64,000 nucleotides of DNA from Streptomyces peucetius (GTDB lineage Bacteria; Actinomycetota; Actinomycetes; Streptomycetales; Streptomycetaceae). Within the stretch, counting starts at the first letter, position 1. Every line of letters starts with the position of its first letter. This document shows positions 1 through 9,090 of this stretch, in pieces. Under the pieces are notes generated by a model. That model ran no database searches and had not been told where the DNA came from. It saw only the letters and a list, made by a program, of their open reading frames with translations. Made by a program: the position numbers and the translations under genes. The stretch covers positions 3,596,001-3,660,000 of the forward strand of contig NZ_CP107567.1 of assembly GCF_025854275.1 (NCBI RefSeq), written 5' to 3'.

Positions 1-1
1 C

Positions 2-292
2 GACGGGCTGCCCGTCCCGGTCCACCACGCCGCCGCGCTCGCCCGCCGCCGCCTCACCGACAAGCTCCCGTCGGAGCCGGTCCCGCTGCCGCCGCCCCAC
101 CGCATCCTCGAATGCGGCAAGTGCGGGGCGCCCGGCCGGGCGGACGCGCTCGTGGACGGCGTATGCGCCCGCTGCCGAGGCGGCGACACGGCCCCGCCAC
201 CCACTCTCCCGGCGGCCCGCGTCCACGCCCACGCGGCCCAGGCCCGCGCGGCGGCGACCCGCCCGCCCGAGACGACAAGGACACAGCCATGA
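2..292 (+). CDS. C-terminal part of a zinc-ribbon protein (5' end outside window)
   Basis: An open frame runs from the window edge to a TGA at 290-292 and gives the last 96 residues of a protein. It contains a CGKCG...CARCRG four-cysteine zinc-ribbon, followed by an Ala/Pro/Arg/Thr-rich tail without predicted structure. Similar zinc-ribbon tails follow DNA-binding or replication-related domains in Streptomyces accessory proteins, but the N-terminus is missing, so no function is assigned. The stop overlaps an in-frame ATG (289) of the next gene, which might couple them, though the better ribosome binding site for that gene is further downstream. Confidence 0.55.
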   Translation, partial: DGLPVPVHHAAALARRRLTDKLPSEPVPLPPPHRILECGKCGAPGRADALVDGVCARCRGGDTAPPPTLPAARVHAHAAQARAAATRPPETTRTQP

Positions 293-348
293 CCGTGCCG
301 CTCACCCGGCCCCGCCACGGGGGACGATGGAGGGGAGGAGGCGACGCC

Positions 349-933
349 ATGACCCGCATCAGCGCCGAGAACCCCGAGATGTCCGTCGAGGACTTCGAGG
401 AACTGGCACGCACTGCCCCTGAGGGCGTAAAGCTCGAGTACATCGCAGGAAAGTTGAGGGTCAAGCCCGTGCCGGACCAGCTTCACAGGGCAATGGTCAT
501 GTGGCTACTGACACAGTGCATGCAGCAACGGCCTGACCTGCTTCTTTACCCCGAACAGGACCTGCGGCTGGAGGGCTACCGCCGGGGGCGCGCCATCGCG
601 GACGGCGCGCTGGCTCCGATCGACCACTTTGTGGCGCATGAGGCCATGTGGCCGAACCCGGAGGGCGTCCTCATGACCGTCGAGGTCACCTCACACGACG
701 GCGACACCCACAATCGCGACCGGATCGAGAAGCGCGACGGCTACGCGGCCGCCGGGATTCCCGTCTATCTCCTCATCGATCGGGACACAAACTCGCTTCT
801 CGTTCACAGCGAGCCCAGGAACGGCACGTACCACCTCGCCCGGACCTACTCCTACGGCGAGACCGTCCGGCTCCCCTCTCCCGTCGACATCACCCTCGAA
901 ACGGAGAGGCTCAAGGACTACACCCAGGCGTAA
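349..933 (+). CDS. Uma2-family (PD-(D/E)XK nuclease fold) protein
   Basis: A 194-residue protein of the Uma2/DUF820 family, which is abundant in Streptomyces and cyanobacteria and has a restriction-endonuclease fold; its cellular role is not established. Visible features are an N-terminal 'VEDFEELARTAPEGVKLEYIAG' type opening with the Lys-Glu pair, then the metal-site pattern: Asp in DGALAP, 'TVEVTS' (the ExxS part) and the Arg/Lys-rich 'RDRIEKRDGYAAAG', ending in the usual 'IPVYLLIDRD' strand. The start at 349 is preceded by GGGGAGGAG at 7 nt; an alternative ATG at 289 overlaps the upstream stop codon. Confidence 0.85.
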   Translation: MTRISAENPEMSVEDFEELARTAPEGVKLEYIAGKLRVKPVPDQLHRAMVMWLLTQCMQQRPDLLLYPEQDLRLEGYRRGRAIADGALAPIDHFVAHEAMWPNPEGVLMTVEVTSHDGDTHNRDRIEKRDGYAAAGIPVYLLIDRDTNSLLVHSEPRNGTYHLARTYSYGETVRLPSPVDITLETERLKDYTQA

Positions 934-1057
934 ACTCGGCCGCATGAGCCGACGACGACATTGATCCACCGCCTCTGGTCCAGGAACGGGCTGTCGCGGG
1001 CCGCCGCGCGGGTGAGCACCCGGCGTCCCCTGTCCGTCCCAGCCAAGGACCACACGC

Positions 1058-2302
1058 ATGCTCACCGCTTCGTCGTGCCCACCCGGGCCGAACGGCCCGC
1101 TCGATCCCCGCGTCCGCAGACTTGAGCGACGGCTCTACGCCTACGCGGGACTTGAGGACTTCGTCCTCCTCTACCCCCTCTACGCCCTGCTCTTCGCCGA
1201 GCACGGTCTGACCACCGCCGAGATCTCGTCCCTGTTCGCCATCTGGTGCGTCGTCGGCCTGCTGGTCGAGGTGCCGTCCGGTGTGTGGGCCGACGTCGTG
1301 TCCCGCCGGGCCGTGATGGTCGTCGGCCCGGTGCTGACCGCCTGCGGGTTCGCGCTGTGGGCGCTGACCCCGTCGTACGCCGCCTACGCCGCCGGGTTCA
1401 CGCTCTGGGCGATCGGCGGTTCACTGCGCTCGGGCTCGATGGAGGCCCTCGTCCACGACGAGCTGGAACGGCTCGGCGCGGCCGACCGCTACGGGCGGGT
1501 CATGGGCCGGGCGGCGGCCGTCAGCATGGCCGCGACCGCCACGGCGACCGCCGCCGCCACGCCCGCGCTCGCCTTCGGCGGCGACACCCTGGTGTGGGCG
1601 GGCAGCATCGCCGCGTGCCTGCTGTGCGCGGCGGTCGGCGCGACGCTCCCCGAGCACCGGGCAGCCGCCCACCCTCGCGCGAAGGCCGAACTCCCGGGGT
1701 ACGTCGCCACCTTGCGGGACGGCCTCACCGAGGTACGTGGCAGCCGGCCCGTCCGCCGGGCCATGGTGCTCGCCGTGGTGATCACCTCGGTGTGGGGCGT
1801 GCTGGACGAGTACGTGCCGCTGCTGGCCGCGTCCACGGGCGTGGCGACCGAGACCGTACCGCTGCTGGTGCTGGTGGTGTGGGTCGGTGTGACGCTCGGC
1901 TCGCTGCTGGTCACGGCCGGCGAACGGCTCGCGGACCGTACGGTGGCCGCGCTGGTCGCGGCAGCCGCCGCCGCACTGGCCGCGGGCGCGCTCTCCGGCG
2001 TGCCTGCCGGATTCGTGCTGCTCGGTGCCGCGTTCGGCACCTTCCAGCTCGCGGACGTCCTGGCGGACGTACGGCTCCAGTCGGCGATCACCGGCCGAAG
2101 CCGGGCGACGATCACCTCGCTGACCGGTCTGGGCACCAACATCGTCTCCCTGCTGGCGTACGGCGCCTACGCGGCGCTGTCCCCGTTCGTCTCGCACGGT
2201 GCCGTCTTCGCCCTGCTGGCGCTGCCGTACCTGCTGGTGGCCGCCGCGCTGGGCCGGGCGCGGCGACCGGCCCAGGCGCCGGCCGGTCAGGAGACGCAGT
2301 AG
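1058..2302 (+). CDS. MFS transporter, possible lasso-peptide exporter
   Basis: A 414-residue major facilitator superfamily permease with about 12 hydrophobic segments. The loop after TM2 reads 'GVWADVVSRRAVM', the family's GxxxDRxxRR-type signature in degenerate form. The substrate cannot be read from the sequence. It is convergent with the lasso cluster, ending 62 bp from the leader-peptidase gene, and that cluster has no ABC exporter in the window, so a role in exporting the peptide or giving immunity is a possible inference but not shown. The start has AAGGACC upstream. Confidence 0.8.
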   Translation: MLTASSCPPGPNGPLDPRVRRLERRLYAYAGLEDFVLLYPLYALLFAEHGLTTAEISSLFAIWCVVGLLVEVPSGVWADVVSRRAVMVVGPVLTACGFALWALTPSYAAYAAGFTLWAIGGSLRSGSMEALVHDELERLGAADRYGRVMGRAAAVSMAATATATAAATPALAFGGDTLVWAGSIAACLLCAAVGATLPEHRAAAHPRAKAELPGYVATLRDGLTEVRGSRPVRRAMVLAVVITSVWGVLDEYVPLLAASTGVATETVPLLVLVVWVGVTLGSLLVTAGERLADRTVAALVAAAAAALAAGALSGVPAGFVLLGAAFGTFQLADVLADVRLQSAITGRSRATITSLTGLGTNIVSLLAYGAYAALSPFVSHGAVFALLALPYLLVAAALGRARRPAQAPAGQETQ

Positions 2303-2364
2303 CGGTCCCCCTCGGGCCGGCCTTCGGACCGCCCTTCAGGCCGGTCTTCTGCCCTGAGCTCTCG

Positions 2365-2811
2365 TCACTCCTCGGTGGCGCGCCCCGCCTTGGCCGGCGG
2401 CACGGCGATCAGGCGGGCGAAGCTCTCCGGGCGACCCCGTTCGCCGATCAGTTCACCGTCCGCCTCGACCCATGCGTGCGCGGCGAACGGCGGTGCCGCC
2501 CGTACGCCGACGCACCAGGTGGGCCACACGCCCTGGAGACGGCAGAGCAGCGCGATGGAGACCGAGCGCGGCAGGCACGAACGCAGGCCGTTGAGGCTGA
2601 GGCTGGCCGCCAGCACCGAGGCCCGGGCGCCGTGCGCCTGGGTGCTGTTCGCGGCGGCGGCCCCCCGGCTGAGGCGGGTCAGTACGCGGGTCAGCAGATG
2701 AGGTCTGAGGAGAACCAGCAGCCGGGCGGTGCAGATGGCCAGCCGGGTGAGGAGCCGCAGCCGCAGCGGCCGTCTGGTCCGGTTGCGCTCCAGGGCGACG
2801 GTGATGCTCAC
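2365..2811 (-). CDS. Lasso peptide leader peptidase (B2, transglutaminase-like)
   Basis: A 148-residue protein of the lasso B2/McjB-C type, the cysteine protease that removes the leader peptide during maturation. The catalytic triad can be placed: Cys in 'LRSCLPRSVS', His in 'AAHAWVE' and Asp in 'EADGELIGE'; the 'WVEADGELIGE' stretch is characteristic of the family. The N-terminal half is a hydrophobic/Arg-rich helical region as usual for split B2 proteins. Its ATG overlaps the stop of the RRE protein gene (ATGA), so the two are translationally coupled. It is the last gene of the A-C-B1-B2 order. Confidence 0.9.
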   Translation of the reverse strand: MSITVALERNRTRRPLRLRLLTRLAICTARLLVLLRPHLLTRVLTRLSRGAAAANSTQAHGARASVLAASLSLNGLRSCLPRSVSIALLCRLQGVWPTWCVGVRAAPPFAAHAWVEADGELIGERGRPESFARLIAVPPAKAGRATEE

Positions 2812-3065
2812 TCCTGCACCACCCCGGCGGAGCGCATGGCCGCGATCAGGGCCCGCACGTCGTCCGCCGCGCGCTCCGTGTCCACCTCGAAGTGGTCGGT
2901 GACGCGCCGGACGGCGTCATCGGTGTCGCCGCCGTCCAGCAGCGCCCGGGCGGCGGTGGCGGCGCTGGGGTTCATCTGCCAGTACTCGCCGGTCTTGGTG
3001 TCCAGCAGGACCGCACCGTATTCGGTCTCGGTGACGGTCAGATACGGGCGGTTGCGCAGCTTCAT
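2808..3065 (-). CDS. Lasso peptide RRE protein (B1, PqqD-like)
   Basis: An 85-residue PqqD-like RiPP recognition element. In split lasso systems B1 binds the leader peptide and hands it to the B2 peptidase. The sequence shows the three-strand winged-helix opening (VTETEYGAVLLDTKTGEYWQMNP) and the helical C-terminus with the DxxxAADDVRAL pattern. The ATG has AAGGAAGGA six bases upstream. It starts 27 bp after the cyclase stop and overlaps the B2 start by 4 bp. Confidence 0.92.
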   Translation of the reverse strand: MKLRNRPYLTVTETEYGAVLLDTKTGEYWQMNPSAATAARALLDGGDTDDAVRRVTDHFEVDTERAADDVRALIAAMRSAGVVQE

Positions 3066-3092
3066 CGCATTCCTTCCTTCCGGCCGGGCACG

Positions 3093-4904
3093 TCAGGCGA
3101 CTGCGCGCAGCCATGCTTCGCAGATGATGGTGGAGTCCACGGCGCCGTCCTTGAGGGCGGGCGTGCCGGGTGTCTCCGTCAGCCGGGCGAGCGCGCCGGC
3201 GTCGATGAGCCCGGCCTTGGCCAGGTCGCTGTCCTCCCACAGCGACCGGACCTCGTCGCGGTGCCGGTAGAGACCGCCGACCGCGTCGACGGTGCCTTCG
3301 AACTTGGTGGCGCGTGCCCGGCACTCCTCGGGCAGCACGCCGCGTACCGCTTCCTTGAGCACGGGCTTGAACTGCCAGGGGTCGGTCCGGTCCTCGGGGC
3401 GTACCGACAGTGCGGCGTCGACCACCGCGTCGTCGAAGTACGGCATGGTGACGGGAACGCCCGCCCGGCGTCCGGCCTCGGCGATCGCCGCGCACTCCTG
3501 CGTACCGGAGTAGAGGGCCGACAGCTCCCGGTGGCGGCCGAGCGTGGGTGCGTACGGCTCGGCCTGCGAGGCGGCCTCCCGCAGCCCGGCGGTCACCAGG
3601 TCCCGGCATTCGGGGGTGAGCCACGGCTGGACCACGGGCGGGGCGATCCAGGCCAGTTGCGGGGTGCAGAAGCCGAGGTCGCCGGGTGTGCTCAGGTCGA
3701 TCCCGGCGACCGCGCGGCGGTAGGAGCGCCGGTCGGCGAGCTGGCGCAGCACGGGGCGCCAGCGCCATCCGTAGAGGGTGCGGTAGCCGCGGACCCGCTG
3801 CCAGGCCAGCAGCGGGCGGCGGGTGATCAGGTCGTGGCAGTAGGCGCCGGTCTGGAAGAACAGATGGTCGCCGCCGTGTCCGGTCATGTGCAGCCGGGAG
3901 CCGCGCTCCGCCATCAGGGAGATCACGGCGGTGGCGCGGTCGCGGCTCATGGCGACACCGGCGGGGATGTCGGTGCGGCAGCCGTCGTCGAGGATGCCGC
4001 GGTAGAACAGCGGGGTCTGCTCCGGCGTCAGTTCCACGTGCTCGACGTGCGGCCAGTGCGCGGCGGCGAGACGGGCGTAGTGGGCGTCGTCGCTGATCGA
4101 CTCGTCCCCGGGGATGCCGCCGACGATCAGTTCGCCCGCGCCGAGTTGTCCGGCGGCGAAGGCGCACAGCGAGGTGGAGTCCATCCCGCCGGACAGGTCC
4201 GCGCTCAGCAGGCCGTCCCGCTGTGTGCGGACGGCGACGGCGGCGGCCAGCGCCTCGCGTACGTCGGCCGCGCCTTCGGCCGACGAGCGCTCGGGGGCGG
4301 GCGGGGTGTGCCAGCGGACGTGCCGGGGCGGGGTGCCTTCGCCGGTGGCGAGTAGGGCGAATCCGGGGGCGACGTCGGTCACGCCGTGCCACATGGGGCG
4401 CGGGGGCAGCTGCACGGCCAGTGGTTCGGGCAGCCGCAGGGCCACGGAGGTGAGGTCGATCTCGGCGCCGGCCAGCTCCGCCAGCGCCACGGCACGGTCG
4501 CCGGCCACCGGGCAGCCGTTCACGACGGTGTGGTGCACGCGGCGCATGCCGTAGGCCGTGCCCTGCACGTACAGGGTGCCGCCGACGCTGCCCACCACGT
4601 GGAAGCTGCCGGGGATCGCCGCGGAAAGGGCCTCGAGCCGTCCGGCCCTGCCCCGCAGCCTTCCGGTCCACCGGGGCAGTTCGTCGGTCCGTCGCGGCAG
4701 CATGCCGATCAGCGCGACGGCGTCCGTGCCGGCCCGGGCGACGGCGATGTCCTCGTCGGCCCAGGCGCCGATGATCCAGGGGCGGCCGGAGGGATGGTGC
4801 AGCACCCGCAGTCCGGGTGCCGCGGCCTGGAGGCGACGGGCCACGGCGCCCGCGTCCTCGCGGTCAGGAAGCGCAAAGAAGTGCGGTGCGCCGTGGCTCG
4901 TCAT
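3093..4904 (-). CDS. Lasso peptide macrolactam synthetase (asparagine synthetase-like C protein)
   Basis: A 603-residue asparagine-synthetase homologue that activates the side-chain carboxylate of the ring Asp with ATP and closes the isopeptide ring. The PPi-loop SGGMDSTS sits at about residue 239 (numbered from the upstream GTG). The N-terminal glutaminase-like domain lacks the catalytic Cys2, as expected for a lasso cyclase rather than a true AsnB. I chose the ATG at 4904 (8 nt from GGAGGA); a GTG at 4907 is adjacent. The gene begins 22 bp downstream of the precursor stop and the cluster reads as one transcript. Confidence 0.93.
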   Translation of the reverse strand: MTSHGAPHFFALPDREDAGAVARRLQAAAPGLRVLHHPSGRPWIIGAWADEDIAVARAGTDAVALIGMLPRRTDELPRWTGRLRGRAGRLEALSAAIPGSFHVVGSVGGTLYVQGTAYGMRRVHHTVVNGCPVAGDRAVALAELAGAEIDLTSVALRLPEPLAVQLPPRPMWHGVTDVAPGFALLATGEGTPPRHVRWHTPPAPERSSAEGAADVREALAAAVAVRTQRDGLLSADLSGGMDSTSLCAFAAGQLGAGELIVGGIPGDESISDDAHYARLAAAHWPHVEHVELTPEQTPLFYRGILDDGCRTDIPAGVAMSRDRATAVISLMAERGSRLHMTGHGGDHLFFQTGAYCHDLITRRPLLAWQRVRGYRTLYGWRWRPVLRQLADRRSYRRAVAGIDLSTPGDLGFCTPQLAWIAPPVVQPWLTPECRDLVTAGLREAASQAEPYAPTLGRHRELSALYSGTQECAAIAEAGRRAGVPVTMPYFDDAVVDAALSVRPEDRTDPWQFKPVLKEAVRGVLPEECRARATKFEGTVDAVGGLYRHRDEVRSLWEDSDLAKAGLIDAGALARLTETPGTPALKDGAVDSTIICEAWLRAVA

Positions 4905-4926
4905 CACGGGTTCCTCCGGGAGTCCG

Positions 4927-5043
4927 TCAGAACCAGCCGCGTCCGGTGCCGTCGTTGCCGAAGATCACCACGAAGCCGGTGACATCGCGGAAGGTGCCGG
5001 CGGAAACGAACTCCGGGGTCTCGTAAGCAGCCTTCTTCGCCAT
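4927..5043 (-). CDS. Lasso peptide precursor (A protein), 38 residues
   Basis: A 38-codon ORF immediately upstream of the cyclase, with AAAGGA ahead of its ATG. The leader carries the YxxPxF recognition motif (YETPEF, residues 7-12) that B1 proteins bind, and ends ...FRDVTG. With the conserved Thr at position -2, the core is FVVIFGNDGTGRGWF: 15 residues, with Phe1 closing onto Asp8 in an 8-residue ring and a 7-residue tail ending in the bulky Arg-Gly-Trp-Phe that could act as steric lock. There is no Cys, so it is class II. If cleavage were one residue earlier, Gly1-Asp9 would give a 9-residue ring. Family context is very strong; the processing site is inferred. Confidence 0.92.
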   Translation of the reverse strand: MAKKAAYETPEFVSAGTFRDVTGFVVIFGNDGTGRGWF

Positions 5044-5074
5044 CGTTCAGGTCCTTTCTCTTGATGGGATCGGA

Positions 5075-5135
5075 ATGGATCCGTAGGGATCTGGGGGGTG
5101 ACCCGCATGGATCCGTTGGATCGATCGAACGATCG
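5075..5135. promoter_or_regulatory. Direct repeats and palindrome upstream of the lasso precursor
   Basis: Two identical ATGGATCCGT copies (5075-5084, 5107-5116) lie 32 bp apart, about three helical turns, followed by CGATCG-AA-CGATCG (5122-5135). They lie 30-90 bp upstream of the precursor start, where promoter and operator are expected. No known regulator is assigned. Confidence 0.4.
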
Positions 5136-5298
5136 GCAGAAGCCTTGCCGCCCTGGGCGTGGCCGGGCGAGGGCGCTGACCGCTTGGTGCCGGTCCCGGG
5201 AACGTGCTTGGCAGGTCCGGCCGGACCACGCATGACCGGCCGGGGTGAACCACGTCACATCGGCCGCCCCGGTGCCGCCTGTCCGGGCCCGGAAACGC

Positions 5299-5336
5299 CC
5301 GAGGGCGGCACCCCCTTGAAGGGGTGCCGCCCTCGG
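5299..5336 (-). terminator. Rho-independent-type terminator of the symporter gene
   Basis: A perfect 16-bp stem CCGAGGGCGGCACCCC pairs with GGGGTGCCGCCCTCGG around a 6-nt loop, 43 bp past the symporter stop. The same 16-bp stem is used again after groEL2 at 7055-7094. Confidence 0.85.
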
Positions 5337-5378
5337 CCCTGCGGTCGGGTCCGGTCCGGGAGGGACCAGAGGTCCGTG

Positions 5379-6833
5379 TCACTGCCCGCCGTGCGACTTG
5401 GCGAGCCGCTGCGCGTCGTCGGCGTCCGTGCCCGCCGGTTCCCAGCACTCCACGCCCTTCAGGCCGGGGATGCGGTCCCGGGTGAAGACGGGGTCCAGTC
5501 CGGCACGGCGCTGGGCGGTGTAGTCGTCCATCAGCCGGAAGGCGATCGCCGACAGCGGCAGGATCGCGATCAGGTTGACGAGGACCATCGCGCCCATCGT
5601 GATGTCCGCGAGGCTCCACACGACGCTGACCGAGCCCATCGCTCCGAGCACGGCACAGGCGAGGACGACCGCCCGGTAGCCGGTCATCGCCGACGCGCTG
5701 CCGGTGATGAAGCGGATGTTGGACTCGCCGTAGTAGTAGTTACCGATCATGGAGCTGAAGGCGACCATGAAGACGACCAGCGTCAGGATGTGTCCGGCCC
5801 AGTCGCCGAGGGCCACGTTGAGGGCGGACTGGGTGACGTCCGCGCCGCCGCGCTCGCCCAGGGTCGGGTTGGCGCTGAGGATGATGAACGCGGTCATGCT
5901 GCAGACGACCAGCGTGTCGAAGTAGACGCCGAGGGTCTGCACCAGGCCCTGCTTGACCGGGTGCGTGGTGTCCGCGGAAGCGGCGGCGTTGGGCGCGGAG
6001 CCCATGCCGGCCTCGTTGGAGAACATGCCGCGCCGCACGCCCTGGAGGATCGCCGTGCCGACCGCGCCGCCCGCGACCTCGCGGAAGCCGAACGCGCCGC
6101 CGATGATGTCGGCGATCATGCCGGGCACCGCGGTGATGTTGAACAGGACGACCACGAGGCCGAGCAGCAGGTAGATGCCCGCCATCACCGGGATCAGCAC
6201 CTTGGTGACCGCGGTGAGGCGCTTCACGCCGAAGAACACGGCCAGCGCGAGCAGCACGGCCAGCACGACGCCGAGCACCGGGGCGAACCAGCTGGAGTCC
6301 GTACCGCCCATGGAGCCCTCGACGGCCACCGTGATGGTGTTGGACTGCACTGCGGTGAGAACGAACCCGAAGGTCAGAGTGATGAGCACGGCGAACAGCA
6401 CACCGAGCCAGCGCTTTCCGAGGGCGCGCTCCATGTAGTAGGCCGGGCCTCCGTGGTACGTGCCGGGCTCCTTGCCGCGCGCCTTGTACAGCTGGGCGAG
6501 GGCGGACTCGACGAACGCCGAGGCGCCGCCGACGAGGGCCATCATCCACATCCAGAAGACCGCGCCGGGCCCGCCCATGGTGATGGCGGTGGCCACACCG
6601 GCGATGTTGCCGGTGCCGATGCGGGCGGCCGCCGAGATGGTGAAGGCCCCGAAGGGGGAGACGCCGTCCGTCGACTTGTCCTTGAAGACCCGGAACATGT
6701 CCGGGATCATCCGCAGCTGGACCGCCCTGGAGCGGAAGGTGAACCAGAGGCCGGCCACGGCCACCAGCGGGATCAGCAGATAGGTCCAGAAGACATCATT
6801 GATGTCGACGATCCAGGTGTTGAGGGTGCTCAT
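5379..6833 (-). CDS. Alanine/glycine:sodium symporter (AGCS family)
   Basis: A 484-residue membrane protein of the AGCS family, which takes up alanine or glycine with Na+ (or H+). Family hallmarks are 'GAFTISAAARIGTGNIAGVATAITMGGPGAVFWMW', the consensus P-G-A-x-F-W-M-W, and 'RGMFSNEAGMGSAPNAAASA' near the middle, plus about 11 hydrophobic segments. The start at 6833 (MSTLNTW) puts the first TM at residue ~15; an upstream in-frame ATG at 6941 would add an Arg/Pro-rich stretch unlike the family. It stands alone, with its own terminator and two palindromes upstream. Confidence 0.9.
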   Translation of the reverse strand: MSTLNTWIVDINDVFWTYLLIPLVAVAGLWFTFRSRAVQLRMIPDMFRVFKDKSTDGVSPFGAFTISAAARIGTGNIAGVATAITMGGPGAVFWMWMMALVGGASAFVESALAQLYKARGKEPGTYHGGPAYYMERALGKRWLGVLFAVLITLTFGFVLTAVQSNTITVAVEGSMGGTDSSWFAPVLGVVLAVLLALAVFFGVKRLTAVTKVLIPVMAGIYLLLGLVVVLFNITAVPGMIADIIGGAFGFREVAGGAVGTAILQGVRRGMFSNEAGMGSAPNAAASADTTHPVKQGLVQTLGVYFDTLVVCSMTAFIILSANPTLGERGGADVTQSALNVALGDWAGHILTLVVFMVAFSSMIGNYYYGESNIRFITGSASAMTGYRAVVLACAVLGAMGSVSVVWSLADITMGAMVLVNLIAILPLSAIAFRLMDDYTAQRRAGLDPVFTRDRIPGLKGVECWEPAGTDADDAQRLAKSHGGQ

Positions 6834-6920
6834 GATGAGATGCGTCCCGGGTCTTTGTGAGTCGGGGCTCGGCTCGGGCTGCGATGCGTACGGGTCGCGT
6901 ACAGCTGGTGCCCTCGGCCG

Positions 6921-6955
6921 CGGAAGCATTCTTCCGTTCAAAGCTCTGCAGAGCT
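6921..6955. promoter_or_regulatory. Two palindromes upstream of the AGCS symporter gene
   Basis: CGGAAG-CATT-CTTCCG (6921-6936) and the perfect 14-bp palindrome AGCTCTGCAGAGCT (6942-6955) lie about 90-120 bp before the start codon. They could be operators; no regulator is recognised. Confidence 0.35.
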
Positions 6956-7054
6956 AACCAGGGCCTTGTCCCGCTGAAAAGACATTCCGGTCGTGCGGCA
7001 TCTCACACTCTGTACCGGTTTCTCCCGCAGAAAACCGCCCTGGAGCGGCAACGC

Positions 7055-7094
7055 CCGAGGGCGGCACCCCCTGGGAGTGGGGTGCCGCCCTCGG
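7055..7094 (-). terminator. Terminator of groEL2
   Basis: A perfect 16-bp stem identical to that at 5299-5336, with an 8-nt loop, 28 bp past the groEL2 stop. Confidence 0.85.
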
Positions 7095-7122
7095 TCAAGG
7101 ACGGTTGATCGACAGAAGTCGA

Positions 7123-8853
<1,731 letters not shown>

Positions 8854-8891
8854 TCACCGACCCGATCCAAGTTCTGTCACTCTCACTGGGA

Positions 8892-8918
8892 GAGTGCTAA
8901 CGCCAATGATTAGCACTC
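8892..8918. promoter_or_regulatory. CIRCE operator (HrcA binding site)
   Basis: GAGTGCTAA-N9-TTAGCACTC, a perfect 9-bp inverted repeat with the canonical 9-nt spacer, lies about 150 bp upstream of groEL2. HrcA binding here represses chaperonin genes outside heat shock. Confidence 0.97.
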
Positions 8919-8935
8919 GACCCCCGAGAGTGCAA
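8907..8935 (-). promoter_or_regulatory. Probable groEL2 promoter overlapping CIRCE
   Basis: On the minus strand TTGCAC (8930-8935) and TAATCA (8907-8912) are separated by 17 bp, with the -10 hexamer inside the CIRCE operator. This arrangement would let HrcA block RNA polymerase directly. Confidence 0.55.
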
Positions 8936-9090
8936 GCGGCTCCGAAGAAGCCTCCCTGAGGAGTGGCGGTCGGGTGACGGGAGGGCGCAAGCGGCTTCGA
9001 GGGAACGCGAGGCGGCGCCTGGGAGGCGGCCGACGCCGGATCGCGCCGGGAGGCGACCGGAGAGACGGACGGGCGCGCCCGGGCACGCGT

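What the first reader, a model, noticed from the sequence alone, without database searches (positions are those of the whole stretch)
2365..5043. Complete class II lasso-peptide cluster with core FVVIFGNDGTGRGWF
Seen directly: a 38-codon ORF at 4927-5043 with YETPEF in the leader, followed in order by a lasso cyclase (SGGMDS, no Cys2), an RRE protein and a B2 peptidase with a Cys/His/Asp triad. With Thr at leader position -2, the core closes Phe1 onto Asp8. By my arithmetic the threaded peptide should have a monoisotopic mass near 1652.81 Da ([M+2H]2+ about 827.41); the alternative Gly1-Asp9 form would be near 1709.83 Da. I cannot tell without a search whether this peptide is known.
Basis: partly seen in the sequence, partly recalled or inferred. 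Interest (0 to 1): 0.75.

Follow-up and report, generated by a model that had tools for sequence, protein, structure and literature searches.

The report
Lasso peptide gene cluster with Phe1
A Streptomyces chromosome carries a complete, compact four-gene recipe for a small knotted (lasso) peptide that belongs to an apparently uncharacterised branch resembling the citrulassins; it is a new member of a well-known kind of natural product rather than a new kind of system.

Summary
The minus strand carries, in order, a 38-aa precursor (4927-5043), a lasso cyclase (3093-4904), a PqqD-type RRE (2808-3065) and a B2 leader peptidase (2365-2811). One detail is doubtful: the B2 acid partner is more likely Glu (Glu124 or Glu116, each invariant in 14 of 14 B2 proteins aligned) than Asp118 (7 of 14).

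The Phe1-Asp8 reading is well supported. Twenty distinct related precursors (19 cores) all place Tyr at -17, Thr at -2 and Gly at -1; no core begins with Gly under this cut (8 F, 6 L, 4 M, 1 W). In four 17-residue cores, starting at the Gly would need a 10-residue ring, outside the known 7-9. Leepeptin, with the same Thr-Gly, was found one Gly lighter than first predicted.

The cyclases form a clade apart from the citrulassins; the peptide lacks citrulassin's Arg9 and tail, and no PAD match was found in this genome. The core was absent from the open-access main texts searched. Production, threading and activity are untested. Verdict: new member of a known kind, in an apparently uncharacterised subfamily.

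The parts
4927..5043 (-). Precursor gene (A), 38 aa
   Evidence: NF033521 lasso leader 23.4 bits over the cut-off of 19; orthologues at 83% and 61% identity in 2 of 391 other genomes of the genus sample
4975..5043 (-). Leader MAKKAAYETPEFVSAGTFRDVTG (23 aa); Tyr -17, Thr -2, Gly -1
   Evidence: Register identical in 20 of 20 distinct related precursors
4930..4974 (-). Core FVVIFGNDGTGRGWF; ring Phe1-Asp8 (inferred), tail GTGRGWF with Trp14/Phe15 as probable plugs (inferred)
5052..5057 (-). Probable ribosome-binding site before the precursor ATG
   Evidence: the last 20 or so bases before the ATG are alike in S. durocortorensis and S. xantholiticus, the DNA just above them is not
3093..4904 (-). 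Lasso cyclase (C), 603 aa, Asn-synthetase family, SGGMDS motif
   Evidence: PF00733; NF033561 below cut-off; 87-88% identical orthologues
2808..3065 (-). RRE / PqqD-like leader-binding protein (E or B1), 85 aa
   Evidence: NF033530 105.5 bits over 70; matches the solved TfuB1 chain 6jx3, E 1.6e-16
2365..2811 (-). B2 leader peptidase, 148 aa, Cys79/His112 and Glu124 or Glu116; its GTG start overlaps the RRE stop
   Evidence: NF033537 100.7 bits over 33; residue conservation

Best explanation
This is a complete, probably functional A-C-E-B lasso-peptide operon. The 85-aa RRE binds the YETPEF leader and presents the precursor to the B2 cysteine peptidase (Cys79/His112, probably with Glu124), which cuts after Thr(-2)-Gly(-1). 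The cyclase activates the Asp8 side chain with ATP and joins it to the amino group of Phe1, closing an 8-residue ring around the tail GTGRGWF, with Trp14/Phe15 holding it threaded. The expected product is a 15-residue class II lasso peptide of 1652.810 Da. It belongs to a clade of lasso peptides with bulky hydrophobic first residues and, mostly, a C-terminal Gly-Trp-Phe/Leu, apart from the citrulassins. Shown: gene content, order, conservation, motif register, clade. Inferred: enzyme steps, ring, threading, plugs, production. The target is unknown; a narrow antagonistic or signalling role between bacteria is a guess from the class.
For: Gene content and family scores. RRE matches the solved TfuB1. 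Same four-gene order in S. durocortorensis, S. xantholiticus, G287, G671, G309 and G502 and on the plasmid of Streptomyces sp. NBC_00190. 20 distinct precursors with the same leader register and Asp8 (15-mers) or Asp9 (17-mers). Precedents for a core starting after Thr-Gly with a bulky residue: leepeptin, Snou-LP, citrulassin N. Cyclase tree: the 13 rows with a precursor seen or linked all fall in one 24-row clade, SH-aLRT 100, apart from the citrulassins. In S. durocortorensis and S. xantholiticus ring residues differ while the tail is GTGRGW(F/L). A lasso cluster without a transporter can work: chaxapeptin is exported from S. coelicolor and S. albus without one (PMC6856326, passages).
Against: No expression, mass or structure data. 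No transporter lies in the operon, although most lasso clusters encode one, leepeptin needed its two and a citrulassin cluster (Lp1) has one. No sigma-70-like promoter or intrinsic terminator was found in 2290-5400 (the model suits Streptomyces poorly). In the core, replacement changes between the three close orthologues are not fewer than silent ones (3, 3, 5 against 2, 1, 1), so purifying selection is not shown. The cyclase is below the cut-off of its best NCBIfam model. The citrulassin cluster Lp1 of S. leeuwenhoekii gave no detectable product natively or heterologously.
Confidence: 0.86

Rival explanations
1. The core begins one residue earlier: GFVVIFGNDGTGRGWF, 16 residues, Gly1-Asp9 ring of nine, mass 1709.83 Da.
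For: Gly is the usual first residue of lasso peptides (PMC5974421, passages), and this Gly is invariant in 20 of 20 related precursors, as a ring-closing residue would be.
Against: It would put Thr at -1 and the YxxP motif at -16. In the four 17-residue relatives the ring would have 10 members. Leepeptin, Snou-LP and citrulassin N start after the Gly; leepeptin's product was 57.02 Da lighter than the first prediction, the mass of one Gly.
Confidence: 0.05
2. The peptide is made and then further modified by enzymes encoded elsewhere in the genome, as citrulassins are by a distant PAD, so the bare mass is not the end product.
For: Citrulassin deimination is encoded outside the cluster (passages of PMC12971885 and PMC8498205). 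The core holds Arg12 and Trp14, possible targets.
Against: No PAD (PF03068) match in this genome, G178, G287 or G309; it was found in 3 of 9 genomes searched, and those 3 are among the 5 citrulassin carriers searched. Residue 9 is Gly, not the Arg9 that PAD modifies. No tailoring gene lies within the four-gene run. Other tailoring enzymes were not searched for.
Confidence: 0.12
3. A silent or decaying cluster: the genes are intact but not expressed in this strain, or the locus is on its way out after transfer.
For: Patchy distribution: a cyclase of at least 48% identity in 4 of 392 sampled genus genomes, own included. Different chromosomal sites in near relatives. No transporter in the operon.
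Against: All four frames are open with conserved active-site residues. The order is kept down to 46-49% cyclase identity.
Confidence: 0.15

Closest known systems
Citrulassins (citrulassin A, N and relatives)
   Same: Leader MKKAYE.P....G.FR..TG, bulky first residue after Thr-Gly, 8-residue ring ending Gly-Asn-Asp8, 15-residue core, genes A-C-E-B; 42-45% cyclase identity in the loci opened
   Different: Tail GTGRGWF instead of RLILSKN; Gly9 instead of Arg9; no PAD match in this genome; separate cyclase clade; the citrulassin cluster Lp1 encodes an ABC transporter (PMC6856326, passages), this operon none
Leepeptin (S. leeuwenhoekii)
   Same: Leader YETPA..TG/Leu1; 8-residue ring; first predicted with the Gly in the core, found without it (PMC6856326, passages)
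   Different: 18 residues, Leu1-Glu8, unlike core; gene order leeCEBADF with two ABC transporter genes
Snou-LP (S. noursei)
   Same: Aromatic first residue (Tyr1) after Thr-Gly; no transporter gene in the cluster (PMC5974421, passages)
   Different: 18 residues; unlike core
Chaxapeptin (S. leeuwenhoekii, pSLE2)
   Same: 15 residues, no Cys, two bulky C-terminal residues (NFF against GWF); same gene order; no transporter in the cluster; B2 with the same Cys, His and two Glu
   Different: Leader ends Thr-Leu, core begins with Gly; cyclase 38.9% identical
keywimysin-related RiPP (NCBI name of relatives; Pfam DUF5972)
   Same: NCBI gives this name to 10 of the 14 distinct precursor hits; 13 of the 14 bear the Pfam mark
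   Different: This precursor scores 20.5 bits, below the Pfam cut-off of 22.6; the name says nothing about the core

Membership tests
Class II lasso peptide | Leader with YxxPx(hydrophobic) and Thr at -2 | tested here: met
   YETPEF at -17 to -12, Thr -2; NF033521 over cut-off
Class II lasso peptide | Asp or Glu at core position 7-9 | tested here: met
   Asp8
Class II lasso peptide | Cyclase, RRE and B2 peptidase encoded beside the precursor | tested here: met
Class II lasso peptide | No Cys in the core | tested here: met
   Sequence
Class II lasso peptide | Threaded ring in the mature product | not testable with these tools
   Needs MS/MS, carboxypeptidase or NMR
Citrulassin | Arg9, described as invariant in the family | tested here: not met
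   Gly9 here; Arg9 in 25 of 26 citrulassin-like loci opened; invariance from PMC9266682, passages
Citrulassin | PAD gene elsewhere in the genome (not universal among carriers) | tested here: not met
   No PF03068 match in G000; found in 3 of 5 citrulassin carriers searched
Citrulassin | Cyclase inside the citrulassin clade | tested here: not met
   Two separate clades, each SH-aLRT 100; the node joining them is weak, 48
DUF5972 / keywimysin-related RiPP | Pfam PF19397 over its gathering score | tested here: inconclusive
   20.5 bits against 22.6; 13 of 14 related precursors carry the mark

The most novel reading that the evidence does not exclude
The window peptide represents a lasso subfamily whose rings close only on bulky hydrophobic first residues (Phe, Leu, Met or Trp in 19 of 19 cores seen), including what may be the first Phe1-Asp8 and Met1-Asp9 rings to be made. 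In its innermost branch a fixed tail (GTGRGWF/L) is the target-binding part while ring residues 1-5 diversify, and the cassette, with no transporter of its own in that branch, has moved between chromosomal sites.
Probability: 0.4. Interest if true: 0.42.

Novelty: new member of a known kind. Interest (0 to 1): 0.3.

Why it matters
If made, it would add an apparently uncharacterised lasso subfamily with Phe at the ring-closing position. Its cyclase would be a natural tool for closing rings on bulky residues, which matters for lasso engineering. The clade gives 19 natural cores, a ready series for testing which ring and tail residues a lasso cyclase accepts and what the conserved Gly-Trp-Phe/Leu end binds.

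Tried and rejected
Papers. The exact core: 0 papers. Five fragments of it and of two sister cores: 0 papers with any of them. "Phe1" as a whole word with "lasso peptide": 4 papers, judged by title and start of abstract only, none about a Phe1 lasso by those; with "macrolactam" added, 0; as the start of a word, 33 papers, 10 listed, a search that also catches Phe10 to Phe19. Supplementary files were not searched and subscription papers are missing, so lists of predicted lasso peptides may well hold this core.

The neighbouring MFS gene (1058-2302, +) as an exporter: rejected as a cluster part. It keeps its place in S. xantholiticus (87% identical) but had no match in the S. durocortorensis stretch nor in the eight further stretches of about 15-16 kb compared; homologues of 52-59% identity at E <= 1e-60 occur in 5 of 30 other genomes.

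Citrulassin membership: rejected (Arg9, tail, PAD, clade). Phage origin: no cyclase match in the phage records. Solved structures: no match for cyclase, B2 or precursor at the limits set. Rfam over 1-9000: none at gathering. Structure prediction was not run: it cannot show a lasso fold, and no coordinates are returned for measuring the active site.

Limits of the clade statements. Of the 24 tree rows in the window's clade 13 are labelled by precursor, six of them (P0002-P0006, P0008) linked only by equal contig length; the precursors of the other 11 were not seen. The tree used 45 of the 120 listed database cyclases plus 11 from the window and loci; the fragment P0010 was left out. The four citrulassin rows start at tblastn match ends, so a few N-terminal residues are missing.
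Full report
What is there. The window lies at 3,596,001-3,660,000 of an 8,050,611-base single-contig genome of a Streptomyces near S. xantholiticus (inferred: 93% DNA identity over 5.7 kb that includes groEL). On the minus strand four genes follow each other closely: precursor 4927-5043, cyclase 3093-4904, RRE 2808-3065, B2 2365-2811. The RRE stop and the B2 start overlap. Family searches name every part: lasso leader NF033521 (23.4 bits, cut-off 19), Asn_synthase PF00733 (121.8, cut-off 21), lasso PqqD NF033530 (105.5, cut-off 70), lasso B2 NF033537 (100.7, cut-off 33). Two scores fall short: Pfam DUF5972 on the precursor (20.5 of 22.6) and NF033561 on the cyclase (240.9 of 300). The genome gives one PF13471 (B2-type) match, this one.

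Arithmetic.

Relatives. The precursor alone matched 3 of 392 sampled genus genomes, the window's own included. In the named genome collection the cyclase gave three loci: S. durocortorensis (87%), S. xantholiticus (88%) and S. harenosi (37%); the S. harenosi precursor has another core and leader end. Among 392 genus genomes 87 have a match at E <= 1e-90, but only 4, own included, reach 48% identity. Samples of the family (4 of 394) and order (5 of 391) at E <= 1e-145 overlap with these; over the three searches six genomes, own included, reach 48%. The next 26 loci opened (L011-L036, 42-45% identity) all carry citrulassin-like precursors such as MKKAYEAPTLVRLGTFRKKTG/LLQSSGNDRLILSKN; 25 of 26 have Arg9, and the other, L029, reads LLGLRGNDELVLDKHV. 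Two protein-database searches with precursor alignments gave 14 distinct precursors (sequences), none identical to the window's.

Where the core begins. In 20 of 20 distinct related precursors Tyr lies at -17, Thr at -2 and Gly at -1 if the cut follows the Gly; they were found by likeness, so some sameness is built in. PMC10368454 (passages) gives YxxPxL at -17 to -12 in its own precursors and says that Thr(-2) was found in all lasso precursors reported before. Three characterised peptides begin after Thr-Gly with a bulky residue. Leepeptin (PMC6856326, passages) has Leu1-Glu8 by NMR; its product weighed 2,338.0440 Da against 2,395.0658 predicted at first, a difference of one Gly (my reading), which is exactly the choice at issue here. 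Snou-LP has Tyr1 (PMC5974421, passages). Citrulassin N has Leu1-Asp8 (PMC12971885, passages); its precursor was not printed in the passages seen, but the same core follows Thr-Gly in L015, L017, L022 and L026. Four relatives have 17-residue cores such as MGLPIGGWDWNHVGGWF; there the acid is residue 9 under this cut but residue 10 if the Gly were first, outside the 7-9 residues known. So Phe1-Asp8 is much the better reading. One citrulassin locus also has Phe1 (FLQRNGNDRLILSKN, L020), so Phe1 is not confined to this clade.

The clade. The 19 distinct cores begin with F (8), L (6), M (4) or W (1); 17 of 19 end in Gly-Trp-Phe/Leu/Ile, the others in GII and GFL; 15 have 15 residues and four have 17. 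In a cyclase tree of 56 rows the window sits in a 24-row clade with SH-aLRT 100, the citrulassins in a 12-row clade with 100; the node that joins the two has only 48, so a sister relation is not shown. Thirteen of the 24 rows are labelled by precursor, six of these by equal contig length only.

Enzymes. In 14 B2 proteins, including the chaxapeptin B2 of pSLE2 and a lariatin-family B2, the His of HAW, the Glu 4 residues after it, the Glu 12 residues after it, the Cys of CLPRS (CLQRS in chaxapeptin) and a second Cys are invariant; the Asp 6 residues after the His is Asp in 7 of 14, Glu in 5 and Gly in 2. The McjB-type triad is described as Cys-His-Asp (PMC7533575, passages); here the third member is more likely Glu124 or Glu116. 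This rests on alignment alone. The RRE matches the solved TfuB1 chain 6jx3 at E 1.6e-16.

Modification. Citrulassins carry an Arg9, described as invariant, that a distant PAD can turn into citrulline (PMC9266682, passages). Here residue 9 is Gly. PF03068 has no match in this genome, G178, G287 or G309; it was found in 3 of 9 genomes searched, all three among the five citrulassin carriers in that set. An unmodified mass is expected, though other tailoring enzymes were not searched for.

Surroundings and movement. In S. xantholiticus the order is groEL - cluster - MFS; in the window it is groEL - agcS - cluster - MFS. In S. durocortorensis the cluster lies elsewhere, after mnmA; the matching site of the window's genome is colinear on both sides (matches end at 7,789 and resume at 8,807 of L062) and holds no cluster. 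In G287 and G671 it lies near DUF2637 and class I lysyl-tRNA synthetase genes. So in the 15-residue branch no shared neighbour was seen across sites, and no transporter besides the MFS gene among the neighbours examined. The 17-residue branch differs: L045, L046 and the 260-kb linear plasmid of Streptomyces sp. NBC_00190 each have a kinase-like ABC1/AarF gene on one side and an MMPL transporter gene on the other, and two of the three an ABC transporter pair further off. That plasmid is typed non-mobilizable in PLSDB; three further plasmids carry the same cyclase match at 46.5%. That the cassette moves as a unit is inferred from the differing sites.

Export. Most lasso clusters encode a transporter, but chaxapeptin's does not and is still exported from S. 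coelicolor and S. albus, while leepeptin needed its two ABC genes (PMC6856326, passages). Here a general Streptomyces exporter must be assumed.

Selection. Between the window, S. xantholiticus and S. durocortorensis, replacement changes in the core (3, 3 and 5 of 15 codons) are not fewer than silent ones (2, 1 and 1); in tail residues 9-15 there are 1, 0 and 1 replacements against 2, 1 and 1 silent. The numbers are too small for a test, but they agree with a varying ring and a kept tail.

Known or not. The core and fragments of it occur in 0 papers of the open-access library; supplements were not searched and subscription papers are missing. NCBI names 10 of the 14 related precursors keywimysin-related RiPP, so automatic annotation already sees this kind. 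I rate it a new member of a known kind: sound and testable, but not surprising to a specialist.

Noticed in passing
window 5303-5332 and 7059-7090: Two similar, very stable G+C-rich hairpins (stems of 16-17 pairs, no T run) flank agcS (5379-6839, -). The exact 12-base-arm pattern occurs only at these two sites in the whole 8-Mb genome; the S. xantholiticus stretch has one copy and no agcS between groEL and the lasso cluster, so agcS was gained or lost between such repeats.
   Followed up: partly
L045, L046, L063: The 17-residue branch (MGLP..WD.., would close Met1-Asp9) has constant neighbours: a divergent ABC1/AarF kinase-like gene upstream and a convergent MMPL transporter gene downstream in 3 of 3 stretches; they may belong to that branch's system.
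   Followed up: partly
P0126 and P0127 (protein database): Precursors of two types (LVVTIHADWNAPGWF and WVYIIGNDGTGRGWL) share a longest-contig length of 8,927,841, suggesting one Streptomyces genome with two lasso cores of this clade.
   Followed up: no
window 112-933, +: Uma2-family (PF05685) protein gene beside the MFS gene.
   Followed up: no
L004 10369-10722: Downstream of the S. durocortorensis cluster lies a stretch whose ORFs repeat short motifs such as VRTCTRT and RYAYTYG, possibly a degenerate tandem repeat.
   Followed up: no
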